A stretch of DNA of 64,000 nt from Lachnospiraceae bacterium (GTDB taxonomy: Bacteria > Bacillota > Clostridia > Lachnospirales > Lachnospiraceae), in the NCBI GenBank assembly GCA_017556805.1, contig JAFYMC010000028.1, positions 124,001 to 188,000 of the forward strand, given 5' to 3'. Positions 22,633-25,754 of this stretch are shown one piece after another. Position 1 is the stretch's first letter; each line of letters starts with the position of its first letter. Both the position numbers and the translations under genes were made by a program. The notes under the pieces were generated by a model. The model was not told the DNA's origin and ran no database searches. It saw nothing but the letters and a program-made list of their open reading frames with translations.

Positions 22633-24159
22633 CTACATTTCATACTGATATTCTCTGCTGAATTCTTCCGATGCCCTGTTTTTCCTGCCGCCCTGTACGC
22701 AGACGCGTTTCATACCAAGTTTTTCCATAACACGGTAGGAGCCCACGTTTTCGGTATCGCAGACTGCGGTGAATTTGTGTATGTTCAGTTCCTTCTTGCA
22801 GAAATCCAGTAAGAGGGTTGCCGCTTCGTAAGCATAACCTTTCCGCCAGTATCTTTTGTTAATAATCCAACCTATTTCCGCTTCCGTCCGTTCTTCATTG
22901 AGGTAGGCGCAGACCGCACCGATATGTGCATCTCCGAGCAGTACTGCAAATTCATAGCTTTCCGGTATCTCCTTTTGCCATTCTGCCTCTTTTCTCTCAA
23001 GGAACGCTCTGGTTTCCTCTATCGTTTCATTCGGCAGATGTACCATGTACTTTGTATTCTCCAAGTCTGAGGCATATTCGTGCACGGTTTTCAGATGTTT
23101 TAATCCCAAGGGTTCTAAGGCAATCTTATTCCTAGTTATCCGGTTCACACAGTCAAGTATACTGTCCTTTGCCTTATGATAGTAAATCACATGAGCTATG
23201 GTTTCTTTCACTTGTCCGATTCCAAGTTCGATTTCTTCTTCGGAGCATTCGATTCCGAGAGCACGCTTTAGGTTGTACTCCAACCACTCCAGACGACCGT
23301 TGTTGCTGTAGTACACCGTCTCCCAATCCGTGGTCAGCGTACCTCCGGCCTTTTCATATGCTCGTATAAAGCTTTGGAACAGATTAAAGTCAATATTACA
23401 AACTTCATATCCGGACCAACACAAGGCCAGTTCGTACAATTCCATAATCGGGCTACTGTAGGAAAGGCACTCCAAATCGATGATACGACACCCTTCTCCC
23501 TTCCAAAGCACGTTTTTACTGTCCATGTCGTTATGGCAGATTGCAACCGTAGCCGGTAACTTCTTGATTGCCTCGTTTCCTTTCTCCTGACTTTCATAAA
23601 GAAGTGCTCGGTTTTCCCGTAACAGTTCGGAAAGTTCCCGATTCTTTTCCGCCAGTTTTTCGATATAACCGTCCCAATCAATGTGAAGCTCGTTTCGCTC
23701 GTACTTTTCTTCTCGCAGTTCCGCCACAGCTTCCTGTTCTACTCCGGCTGTCTGAGGAAGCTTCAATCCATGAATTTTTGCCAGTATCCCGCCGACTTTC
23801 TCACAATGAAACTCTGTGATTTCCTCACTCTTTAATGCCTTGCCGTCGTACCACTCATACAAATAAAAATACTGTCCTTCCATACACTGCATCTTCTTCC
23901 CGCGGGCAGTCAAAGCCGGAAGAATCGGAATGTCTGTTTGCTCCAGCATCGTTTCAAAGGCCTCCGCAGCGCGATAATTATCCATAGCATCTTCCCGTTG
24001 CATAATGAACGGGTTTAGAAGCTTCACGGCATATTTCCCCTGTGTAGTAAACAAGGAGTACATCTTATGCATAAATCCGCCGACCAAGCGGGTTGGAGAC
24101 TGTATCAGTTCACCCAGATTATATTCACAACATAGTTTCTCTAATAATTTTTGTTCCAT
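22633..24159 (-). CDS. APH-like kinase fused to a GNAT acetyltransferase
   Basis: A 508-residue fusion. Residues about 1-330 form an aminoglycoside phosphotransferase/choline kinase-like domain with catalytic CHNDMDSKN (about 204-212, the HxDxxxxN type) and metal-binding RIIDLE. Residues about 345-508 form a RimJ/RimL-type GNAT with EIGWIINKRYWRKGYAYEA as the acetyl-CoA loop and VGSYRVMEKLGM near the end. The domain order is the reverse of the resistance enzyme AAC(6')-APH(2''). Resistance should not be assumed, since CotS-like and antibiotic-inactive kinases share this fold. Start ATG at 24159 has GAGGA upstream. Confidence 0.85.
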   Translation of the reverse strand: MEQKLLEKLCCEYNLGELIQSPTRLVGGFMHKMYSLFTTQGKYAVKLLNPFIMQREDAMDNYRAAEAFETMLEQTDIPILPALTARGKKMQCMEGQYFYLYEWYDGKALKSEEITEFHCEKVGGILAKIHGLKLPQTAGVEQEAVAELREEKYERNELHIDWDGYIEKLAEKNRELSELLRENRALLYESQEKGNEAIKKLPATVAICHNDMDSKNVLWKGEGCRIIDLECLSYSSPIMELYELALCWSGYEVCNIDFNLFQSFIRAYEKAGGTLTTDWETVYYSNNGRLEWLEYNLKRALGIECSEEEIELGIGQVKETIAHVIYYHKAKDSILDCVNRITRNKIALEPLGLKHLKTVHEYASDLENTKYMVHLPNETIEETRAFLERKEAEWQKEIPESYEFAVLLGDAHIGAVCAYLNEERTEAEIGWIINKRYWRKGYAYEAATLLLDFCKKELNIHKFTAVCDTENVGSYRVMEKLGMKRVCVQGGRKNRASEEFSREYQYEM

Positions 24160-24236
24160 AAAACAATCCTCTGCTTTCTTTACTCAAATCAACCGAAATA
24201 TCTACCAAATAACATATATAATCTATCCATATTCAT

Positions 24237-24265
24237 TTGAACATTTGTTCGTTTTGTGTTATAAT
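24237..24265 (+). promoter_or_regulatory. Promoter of the holin-like toxin gene
   Basis: TTGAAC (24237-24242), a 17-nt spacer and TATAAT (24260-24265), placing the transcription start near 24272 and leaving a leader of about 60 nt before the toxin ATG. Confidence 0.75.
24239..24250. promoter_or_regulatory. LexA/SOS box overlapping the toxin promoter
   Basis: GAACATTTGTTC followed by G matches the Gram-positive LexA core GAAC-N4-GTTC. It overlaps the -35 box, the usual place for repression. It also lies in the upstream region of the divergent kinase-GNAT gene. Confidence 0.6.
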
Positions 24266-24300
24266 AGGCATATGGAACAATCGTGTTACAGGGTGGGTTG

Positions 24301-24325
24301 ACCTTCATTCTTACGGAATGAAGGT
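24301..24325 (+). promoter_or_regulatory. Leader hairpin masking the toxin ribosome site
   Basis: ACCTTCATTC and GAATGAAGGT form a perfect 10-bp stem with a 5-nt loop in the toxin mRNA. The 3' arm overlaps the Shine-Dalgarno AAGGTGGAG, so translation should be restrained unless the stem opens. Confidence 0.65.
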
Positions 24326-24332
24326 GGAGCTT

Positions 24333-24428
24333 ATGAAGAACCAGAACAAATTTGACTTCAACGATTTGTTGTCTTTCGGACTCTTTCTATTGGCTTTGCT
24401 TACATTCGTTTTTACGTTTTGTAAGTAA
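24333..24428 (+). CDS. Holin-like toxin of a type I toxin-antitoxin locus
   Basis: A 31-residue hydrophobic peptide: a polar start MKNQNKFDFNDLL, one membrane helix SFGLFLLALLTFVFTF and a short CK tail. Length and pattern fit the putative holin-like toxin family (Hol_Tox, related to TxpA/BsrG peptides), in which the peptide inserts in the membrane. The ATG at 24333 has AAGGTGGAG upstream; longer in-frame readings from 24237 begin before the transcription start. The locus has the expected extras: a masked ribosome site, a convergent promoter and a shared terminator. The LexA-like box would induce it on DNA damage (inference). Confidence 0.75.
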   Translation: MKNQNKFDFNDLLSFGLFLLALLTFVFTFCK

Positions 24429-24439
24429 TTAAACATAGA

Positions 24440-24482
24440 AAAACCGCCCTCATAACTTTGGCTGAAGTGATTGGGCGGTTTT
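24440..24482. terminator. Shared bidirectional terminator of toxin and antisense RNA
   Basis: AAAACCGCCC (24440-24449) pairs with GGGCGGTTTT (24473-24482), giving T-rich ends on both strands. It lies 11 nt past the toxin stop and between the two convergent promoters. Confidence 0.8.
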
Positions 24483-24534
24483 CTACTCTCAACATTCAGG
24501 TCAACCCACCTTGTGGGCGGTTGTTCCTTTTCTG
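24440..24534 (-). ncRNA. Candidate antisense RNA antitoxin
   Basis: A minus-strand transcript of about 95 nt is predicted from the promoter at 24540-24568 to the shared terminator. It would be complementary to the 3' end of the toxin mRNA over the terminator stem, as in the txpA/RatA arrangement. It also contains GGTGGGTTGACCT, the same 13-nt word found in the toxin leader. Confidence 0.55.
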
Positions 24535-24539
24535 GTTAC

Positions 24540-24568
24540 AGTTTAACACAATTCTTCTGTTTTCGCAA
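24540..24568 (-). promoter_or_regulatory. Promoter of the candidate antitoxin RNA
   Basis: TTGCGA (24568-24563), a 17-nt spacer and TAAACT (24545-24540) on the minus strand, facing the toxin gene. Confidence 0.55.
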
Positions 24569-24605
24569 TCCTTTTTTCTCTACCCGCGCTACTTTTGTTG
24601 CCACA

Positions 24606-25754
24606 CTACGGTCGAAATCGCTCCTTTTCTACTACATCATAAATATTTCTTCCGGTTTTCTTTTCAAAATAAGACTTCAACCCCATATTGGCATCCCATT
24701 TGCTCTGAGGATAGACGCCATATCTTGCCTTTACATCATTCATGCGCTCTTCTATATCCAGAACCCCTTCACTTCCTGCCATGGCATCGCATAATTGAAT
24801 CAACCTATCGTAATCATCTGTTATAACTTGCATCAATGCATTCTCGATAAGCTTTCGCTCCTCTTCGGTGGTATCAAACTTGCCAATATATTCCTCTGTT
24901 GATTGGTTATGAAAAGAATGGGTAAGGCAAATTCTTGCAGCCTCTTTATACCCCAGTGTTTTCATGTAAGTGTATCCATCGGATACATGTCCCAGATGTC
25001 GTACTCCGAATCGTCTTCCGATATCATGTAATAATCCTAAGACATATGCTTTTTCGGAATCCATCTTTCCTGATGCAAGTGCTATTTTCTCCGCACAATG
25101 TGCAACTGTCCTTGAATGATTCCCCCATGGTCCGGGATTCATTTCTTCGGCATTCCTCAATAATTCTTCCGCCATCCTCCTGTTCGGGTATCCTCTCCGA
25201 ATATGCTCTATTATTTCTATCACATCATCCCATTGATTCACACGAGTATATTCTGTATTCAGCTGCATATTCGCTTGACTGGTGAACAATACCGGTGTGA
25301 TTCCTACGCTCGAAACAGCATCACAATTTGAAATCAAATCATCAATCATCACATCGATGTGTTCATCCAAACATGCCTGATTCTTATTCAACGTACAAAT
25401 CAGTTTATCGTAAACAATGTTCCCGTTTCTCAGTTCTTCCTCTGTTGTGGCATAGGGATCTGTGTAAAACTCCTTCGTTCTTCCAGTGATAATAACCATT
25501 CTGTGCCCCATTTGATGAAGCAGGCTCACATACCTTGCAGCATCTTTCTTAAACGGAGTCTGCACAACAACCTTATCATAATAATGCTTTTCAAAGTCTA
25601 ACTCATACTTTCTCCATTCTACAGGGATATTACTGTATGATATCTTTTTTCTTTGCAGTTCCTCTAAATCCTTCTCATAGAACTCAGCCACAAAGGGCAT
25701 AAGATACTCGAATGTATTTGTTAATGTATCATCTATGTCAATTGCTATATTCAT
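24606..25754 (-). CDS. HAD-type nucleotidase fused to an HD domain
   Basis: A 382-residue fusion. The N-terminal part (about 1-190) is a HAD phosphatase of the 5'(3')-deoxyribonucleotidase type with the nucleophile motif IDIDDT (Asp6, Asp8), IITGR and the acidic VMIDDL. The C-terminal part (about 205-375) is an HD phosphohydrolase domain with HSRTVAHC, LLHDIGRR (about 239-246), and later THSFH and an Asp within CDAMAG. Both halves could act on nucleotides, so a coupled nucleotide-dephosphorylation role is possible, but no substrate is known. GGAGG precedes the ATG. Confidence 0.85.
   Translation of the reverse strand: MNIAIDIDDTLTNTFEYLMPFVAEFYEKDLEELQRKKISYSNIPVEWRKYELDFEKHYYDKVVVQTPFKKDAARYVSLLHQMGHRMVIITGRTKEFYTDPYATTEEELRNGNIVYDKLICTLNKNQACLDEHIDVMIDDLISNCDAVSSVGITPVLFTSQANMQLNTEYTRVNQWDDVIEIIEHIRRGYPNRRMAEELLRNAEEMNPGPWGNHSRTVAHCAEKIALASGKMDSEKAYVLGLLHDIGRRFGVRHLGHVSDGYTYMKTLGYKEAARICLTHSFHNQSTEEYIGKFDTTEEERKLIENALMQVITDDYDRLIQLCDAMAGSEGVLDIEERMNDVKARYGVYPQSKWDANMGLKSYFEKKTGRNIYDVVEKERFRP

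What the first reader, a model, noticed from the sequence alone, without database searches (positions are those of the whole stretch)
24233..24570. SOS-linked type I toxin-antitoxin locus with a holin-like toxin
Seen: a 31-residue single-helix peptide gene, a TTGAAC-17-TATAAT promoter whose -35 is overlapped by GAACATTTGTTC, a leader hairpin that covers the Shine-Dalgarno, a convergent promoter TTGCGA-17-TAAACT and a shared bidirectional terminator. Known: Hol_Tox/TxpA-type loci use a small membrane peptide and a 3'-overlapping antisense RNA, and LexA binds GAAC-N4-GTTC in Gram-positives. Inferred: the toxin is induced by DNA damage, analogous in logic to enterobacterial TisB but of a different family.
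Basis: partly seen in the sequence, partly recalled or inferred. Interest (0 to 1): 0.8.

Follow-up and report, generated by a model that had tools for sequence, protein, structure and literature searches.

The report
DNA-damage-linked membrane-peptide toxin cassette
This bacterium carries several small genes for peptides that look like membrane toxins, each apparently held off both by the DNA-damage repressor and by an RNA made from the opposite strand, so DNA damage may switch on a whole set of self-inhibiting peptides.

Summary
The locus is one of at least eight related cassettes in this genome: four of this peptide type and four Hol_Tox. A LexA-type box overlaps the toxin promoter. In the genus, perfect boxes precede 22 of 24 copies of this type and 11 of 13 Hol_Tox-type loci. 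The exact 12-mer occurs 26 times in ten genus genomes: 9 at recA, 17 at small toxin-like genes. No box lies near the antitoxin promoter (0 of 114).

The 5' leader pairs, in a covarying 29-pair helix, with a segment beyond the supposed terminator. That helix competes for the anti-Shine-Dalgarno strand. The antisense RNA starts at its 3' arm, so binding should let the leader close over the ribosome site, as published for bsrG/SR4.

This peptide scores below the Hol_Tox cut-off (18.3 against 23.3 bits). Best reading: a bsrG/bsrE-like type I toxin-antitoxin under SOS control, with TisB's logic but unrelated. The passages I read correctly name such control only in E. coli. Transcripts, LexA binding and toxicity are untested.

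The parts
24237..24265 (+). toxin promoter: -35 TTGAAC, 17-nt spacer, -10 TATAAT
   Evidence: plus promoters mean 8.9 of 12 matches against 7.7 in shuffles, 114 loci
24239..24250 (.). LexA-type (SOS) box GAACATTTGTTC overlapping the -35
   Evidence: 22 of 24 genus copies; same 12-mer at recA in 9 of 10 genus genomes, GAACATTCGTTC in the tenth; 26 exact sites in 10 genomes against 8 for the reversed control pattern
24274..24304 (+). 5' arm of the long-range helix (predicted 5' end of the toxin mRNA)
   Evidence: 29-pair helix with 24498-24527; covariation
24301..24325 (+). leader hairpin: anti-SD strand 24301-24311, SD strand 24315-24325; SD GAAGGT 24320-24325
24333..24428 (+). toxin-like ORF, 31 aa, MKNQNKFDFNDLLSFGLFLLALLTFVFTFCK
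   Evidence: Hol_Tox 18.3 bits, E 0.0022, below cut-off; relatives in 28 of 195 genomes and 100 of 397
24436..24485 (.). conserved hairpin with loop motif ACTTTGRCCG-like; likely terminator of the antisense RNA and loop-loop contact site (inference)
   Evidence: minus-strand T-tract of 5 or more in 8 in 102 of 109 loci, plus-strand in 57 of 109
24498..24527 (+). 3' arm of the long-range helix; also the template of the antisense RNA's 5' part
24528..24533 (+). T-tract after the 3' arm (possible toxin mRNA 3' end)
   Evidence: 4 or more T in 8 in 110 of 115 loci
24436..24533 (-). predicted antisense antitoxin RNA, about 98 nt (ends inferred)
   Evidence: promoter position and hairpin; no transcript data
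24540..24568 (-). antitoxin promoter TTGCGA-17-TAAACT, no LexA box
   Evidence: 114 loci: mean 9.3 of 12 against 7.9 in shuffles, -10 mostly 11-15 nt from the arm, box in 0 of 114

Best explanation
A type I toxin-antitoxin cassette of the bsrG/bsrE (Hol_Tox-like) kind, with the toxin promoter under LexA. In undamaged cells LexA sits on the -35 of the toxin promoter while the antisense RNA is made from its own LexA-free promoter. DNA damage removes LexA and the toxin mRNA rises. In that mRNA the 5' leader pairs with the 3' end in a helix of about 29 pairs. This helix takes the anti-SD strand (ACCU) away from the SD and leaves only a short SD hairpin, so the mRNA is translatable. The antisense RNA, which begins with the complement of the 3' arm and so copies the 5' arm, pairs with the 3' arm. 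It thereby breaks the helix, lets the anti-SD strand close over the SD, and offers a duplex to RNase III. Shown by sequence and comparison: box, promoters, helix, covariation, competition in computed folds. Inferred: LexA binding, both transcripts, translation control, RNase III, toxicity.
For: Box: 22 of 24 copies, in each of 7 flank contexts, five of them shared by two or more species (23 of the 24 copies compared); 11 of 13 Hol_Tox-type genus loci. Same box class at recA and lexA in 10 of 10 genus genomes. Two registers of box to -10: GAACATTTGTTC starting 1 nt into the best -35 match and GAACTTGTGTTC starting 4 nt before it (12 and 24 loci), which suggests at least two acquisitions. Box near the antitoxin promoter in 0 of 114. 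Long-range helix: 11 of its 29 pairs have changes on both sides; columns 4/487 AU 35, GC 20, GU 5 and 5/486 GC 32, AU 22, GU 4; the whole structure beats all 500 shuffles on all five measures. The pairing is stronger read as plus-strand than as minus-strand RNA in 114 of 115 loci, so selection acts on the toxin RNA. SD opening is easier with the 3' arm in 110 of 111, median 6.4 against 10.5 kcal/mol; the SD is paired to the anti-SD 0.44 of the time with the arm, 0.87 without. Published bsrG/SR4: SR4 binding extends the SD-sequestering region from 4 to 8 bp (PMC6562991, passages).
Against: No expression, binding or toxicity data. In the full-length fold the SD is still mostly paired (median unpaired 0.17), and in 27 of 111 loci its mean unpaired probability is not higher with the arm. 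The 115 loci were chosen by leader and downstream motifs, so presence of both arms is partly by selection. For the alternative (closed) structure, pairs changed on both sides do not exceed shuffles (12 against 11.5, 257 of 500). The structure counted was taken from one of the 61 sequences. 79 of 115 loci in the family have no perfect box, so LexA control is lineage-specific. GAACN4GTTC is not enriched genome-wide (24 sites against 50 for the control).
Confidence: 0.78

Rival explanations
1. Hok/AapA-like lock: the full-length mRNA with its 5'-3' helix is the silent, stable form, and 3' trimming activates it; the antisense RNA acts on the trimmed form. The LexA layer is the same.
For: A 5'-3' long-distance interaction is the hallmark of hok and aapA mRNAs (PMC6733600, passages). 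The SD is still mostly paired in the full-length fold.
Against: Removing the 3' arm makes the SD harder to open in 110 of 111 loci, the opposite of activation by trimming. The antisense RNA covers the 3' arm, which a trimmed form would lack.
Confidence: 0.15
2. LexA box fortuitous: the GAAC half is just the -35 region and the locus is not SOS-controlled.
For: The -35 itself supplies part of the box; 79 of 115 family loci do without a perfect box.
Against: The GTTC half is not needed for the promoter, yet is kept in 22 of 24 genus copies. The same 12-mer is at recA. A second register occurs in another subfamily.
Confidence: 0.04
3. The inverted repeats are ends of a small mobile element rather than an RNA helix.
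For: Multiple dispersed copies per genome; in L032 an insertion sits between the promoter and the start of the 5' arm.
Against: Both promoters and the box lie outside the repeats and are kept with them. G-U pairs favour the plus strand in 114 of 115. Sites are syntenic across species.
Confidence: 0.03

Closest known systems
bsrG/SR4 and bsrE/SR5 of Bacillus subtilis
   Same: Small hydrophobic peptide, convergent antisense RNA over the mRNA 3' end; bsrG RNA has a main helix P1 whose 3' part SR4 binds, and SR4 binding extends the SD-covering stem from 4 to 8 bp (PMC6562991, passages). The computed fold here has the same logic.
   Different: Toxin promoter carries a LexA box; peptide of another subfamily; many chromosomal copies. 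Equating bsrG P1 with the 5'-3' helix here is my inference; Jahn and Brantl 2013 is not held.
Hol_Tox (PF16935) loci
   Same: Relatives in the genus over the cut-off have the same leader, arms and box. 17 of 18 aligned family members match Hol_Tox at E up to 1, best 1.6e-5. 19 of 27 Hol_Tox loci from a phylum sample have long-range pairing at z below -3, one more at -3.0.
   Different: This peptide scores 18.3 bits, below 23.3. The phylum sample has no perfect LexA box (0 of 27).
tisB/istR-1 of E. coli
   Same: Small membrane peptide gene repressed by LexA, antitoxin RNA not under LexA (PMC8309996, PMC4147584, passages).
   Different: Antitoxin convergent and cis-overlapping here, divergent there; no ribosome standby site tested; no homology claimed.
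hok/Sok and aapA/IsoA
   Same: 5'-3' long-distance pairing in the toxin mRNA (PMC6733600, passages).
   Different: There the interaction hides the SD; here the computed effect is to loosen the SD hairpin.
fst/RNA II (par of pAD1)
   Same: Convergent RNAs overlapping at a terminator-like hairpin (PMC4147584, passages).
   Different: par uses direct repeats DRa/DRb; here the repeats are inverted.

Membership tests
Hol_Tox (PF16935) | Score over the curated cut-off | tested here: not met
   18.3 against 23.3 bits for the window peptide; four other loci of the same genome are over it without a stop
bsrG/bsrE-type type I toxin-antitoxin | Short peptide with one hydrophobic stretch | tested here: met
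   31 aa, residues about 12-29 hydrophobic, read directly from the sequence
bsrG/bsrE-type type I toxin-antitoxin | Convergent antisense RNA overlapping the mRNA 3' end | tested here: inconclusive
   conserved minus-strand promoter at a fixed place; no transcript data
bsrG/bsrE-type type I toxin-antitoxin | Main helix bound by the antitoxin at its 3' part, with change of the SD stem | tested here: inconclusive
   helix and competition supported by covariation and folds; antitoxin binding not tested
bsrG/bsrE-type type I toxin-antitoxin | Peptide toxic, antitoxin RNA neutralises | not testable with these tools
   needs expression
LexA (SOS) regulon | Box of the host's own LexA type overlapping the promoter, conserved | tested here: met
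LexA (SOS) regulon | LexA binding and induction by DNA damage | not testable with these tools
   needs gel shift and mitomycin C RNA-seq
tisB/istR-1 | Divergent antitoxin pairing upstream of tisB | tested here: not met
   the antitoxin promoter is convergent and downstream
hok / aapA | Long-distance interaction that itself hides the SD | tested here: not met
   SD opening easier with the 3' arm in 110 of 111, harder in none
fst (par) | Direct repeats shared by the two convergent RNAs | tested here: not met
   the repeats are inverted
Rfam families | Match over a gathering score | tested here: not met
   only a tRNA in the 64-kb window; only a chance mir-205 match, E 0.55, at relaxed threshold

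The most novel reading that the evidence does not exclude
In this lineage the main output of the SOS response is a battery of up to eight membrane-peptide toxins: of 24 perfect boxes in this genome 15 lie inside genes, and of the 9 in promoter position 7 are toxin loci, one recA, one a polymerase-like gene. LexA control was acquired at least twice. DNA damage, for instance by phage or quinolones, would drive coordinated arrest or death rather than repair alone.
Probability: 0.35. Interest if true: 0.8.

Novelty: new variant of a known kind. Interest (0 to 1): 0.62.

Why it matters
In the passages read, three reviews or papers name LexA control of type I toxins only for E. coli tisB, symE and dinQ (PMC6562991, PMC5848175, PMC6563280). 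If true, the same logic arose separately in Gram-positive gut bacteria, on an unrelated peptide family and in many copies. That makes it testable what DNA damage gains from firing membrane toxins. The conserved 5'-3' helix also offers a general RNA design for Hol_Tox-type loci across the phylum.

Tried and rejected
Rejected: shared terminator as the toxin mRNA's 3' end. The plus-strand T-tract after the hairpin is poor in about half of the loci (57 of 109 with 5 or more T in 8, against 102 of 109 on the minus strand), while a T-tract follows the 3' arm in 110 of 115.

Rejected: direct-repeat pairing as in fst, since the repeats are inverted. Rejected: phage or plasmid origin from public records; tblastn with this peptide found no match in phages or plasmids, though the leader pattern matched 3 IMG/VR contigs. 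PHROGs gave only weak hits (best E 0.0067 for the window peptide, phrog_13077, unknown function). Rfam gave nothing useful.

A first duplex test placed the 3' arm wrongly in some loci (it took the hairpin); it gave 112 of 114 and was replaced. A first SD test took a wrong SD in loci with an upstream start; replaced, which left out 4 of 115 loci without an SD match. In one search I listed only ORFs of 60 aa or more and so missed the Hol_Tox genes behind three boxes; one search found them. L268 was misread and re-read as L318. L290 and L309 could not be parsed, nor L242.

The 115 loci come from fetched loci L001-L056 and L104-L238, kept only if a leader motif, a peptide pattern and a downstream motif were present and rows were unique; the rest were dropped. 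61 of the 115 (under 88% identity) went into alignment A2. L056 was left out of the flank comparison. Only 29 of the phylum Hol_Tox loci were fetched anew, 27 scored.

Literature: passages only were read in PMC6563280, PMC9045289, PMC6733600, PMC4234289, PMC4147584, PMC8309996, PMC5848175, PMC8167048, PMC6562991 and PMC11264685; other titles were seen as listings. Absence from print rests on searches. One review passage (PMC8167048) assigns TisB/IstR to B. subtilis; the other passages place it in E. coli.

Full report
WHAT IS THERE. Between two minus-strand genes (22633-24159, kinase-like plus GNAT; 24606-25754, HAD/NT5C plus HD) lies a plus-strand promoter, a leader, a 31-aa ORF, a hairpin, and a minus-strand promoter facing it. 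GAACATTTGTTC at 24239-24250 overlaps the -35. Pattern scans alone are at chance level, so everything rests on comparison.

COPIES. The genome (G000, 2.90 Mb, 37 contigs) holds four copies of this peptide type and four Hol_Tox loci over the Pfam cut-off. Of 195 relatives 28 have this peptide type (E up to 0.01); with an 18-row alignment, 100 of 397 genomes of the family do. The leader pattern gave 105 stretches in named genomes, mostly Lachnospiraceae. In ten genus genomes there are 24 copies; 23 compared fall into 7 flank groups, five of them shared by two or more species. So these are old chromosomal residents.

LEXA BOX. 22 of the 24 genus copies have a perfect GAAC-N4-GTTC within 160 nt of the start. 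L032 keeps it behind an insertion; L056 is a degenerate copy without it. Of 13 Hol_Tox-type loci in the genus 11 have a perfect box, one GAACATATGTTT, one none. recA has GAACATTTGTTC in 9 and GAACATTCGTTC in 1 of 10 genus genomes, and lexA has GAACATCTGTTT and further boxes in 10 of 10. The exact 12-mer occurs 26 times in the ten genomes, against 8 for the reversed control: 9 at recA, 11 at copies of this type, 1 at L032, and 5 at other small toxin-like genes, four of them Hol_Tox-type and one MDTMEILTL.... In this genome GAACN4GTTC is not enriched overall (24 against 50 control sites): 15 lie inside genes, 7 at toxin loci, 1 at recA, 1 before a gene that looks like a Y-family polymerase (name from recall). 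In the wider set 36 of 115 unique loci have a perfect box and 2 more one mismatch. The boxes fall in two registers relative to the -10 (12 and 24 loci), which suggests at least two acquisitions. In other genera recA has a perfect box in 9 of 11 genomes scored, one GTTT variant, one none, so LexA specificity is shared and the toxin box is what varies. No perfect box stands near the antitoxin promoter (0 of 114). C. difficile LexA sites are likewise GAAC-N4-GTTT/C (PMC4234289, passages).

LONG-RANGE HELIX. The predicted toxin RNA 24272-24536 folds at -100.9 kcal/mol with its ends paired, 24274-24304 with 24498-24527, 29 pairs. In 115 loci the median duplex energy is -44.0; it beats the best of ten shuffles in 114, and is lower read as plus-strand than as minus-strand RNA in 114. 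In 61 distinct sequences 11 of the 29 pairs changed on both sides, and the whole structure beats all 500 shuffles on every measure. Limits: the loci were picked by motifs, the structure came from one of the sequences, and the inner part of the downstream hairpin is poorly kept (44% paired). An independent set, Hol_Tox loci from a phylum sample, shows long-range pairing at z below -3 in 19 of 27, one more at -3.0.

SWITCH. The ACCU of the 5' arm is also the lower part of the anti-SD strand. Without the 3' arm the SD is paired to the anti-SD 0.87 of the time, with it 0.44 (61 sequences). SD opening costs a median 10.5 without and 6.4 kcal/mol with the arm, easier in 110 of 111. The full-length RNA is still largely closed (median unpaired 0.17), so this is a loosening, not full opening. 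The antisense RNA, starting near 24533, begins with the complement of the 3' arm and should compete with the 5' arm. For bsrG/SR4 it is published that antitoxin binding extends the SD-covering region from 4 to 8 bp and that SR4 contacts the 3' part of helix P1 (PMC6562991, passages); that P1 corresponds to the 5'-3' helix here is inference.

WHERE IT BELONGS. It works like bsrG/SR4 with TisB-like transcriptional control. It is not a formal Hol_Tox member (18.3 against 23.3 bits), though 17 of 18 aligned relatives touch that profile at E up to 1. In the searches made I saw no report of a LexA-controlled type I toxin in a Gram-positive bacterium; the library holds open-licence papers only, and one review passage (PMC8167048) places TisB in B. 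subtilis against the other passages.

Noticed in passing
L032 (G004:C38), between 1280 and 1501: A toxin copy with about 127 bp inserted between its promoter and the start of the 5' arm.
   Followed up: partly
L255 (G006:C25): A third kind of small peptide gene (MDTMEILTLVLAIFAILSFL...) behind the same GAACATTTGTTC box; not scanned against any library.
   Followed up: partly
L077 and the lexA loci L072-L081: Several (4 to 6) GAAC-N4-GTTT/C-like boxes in the roughly 190 nt before lexA.
   Followed up: partly
G004:C38, G007:C47, G006:C16: Pairs of toxin copies about 5-6 kb apart on one contig in three species.
   Followed up: no
L004, L016, L040-L044, L047, L234: Extra stem-loop-like sequence inserted in the 5' arm after AATCGTG; L144 and L196 have inserts in the 3' arm.
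   Followed up: no
L276 (G004:C33): A Hol_Tox-type copy that has lost leader and promoter but keeps the downstream half.
   Followed up: no
L209-L211 (IMG/VR contigs): The leader pattern occurs in three viral contigs.
   Followed up: no
window 22633-24159 and 24606-25754: Neighbours are two-domain proteins: phosphotransferase plus acetyltransferase, and HAD/NT5C plus HD.
   Followed up: no
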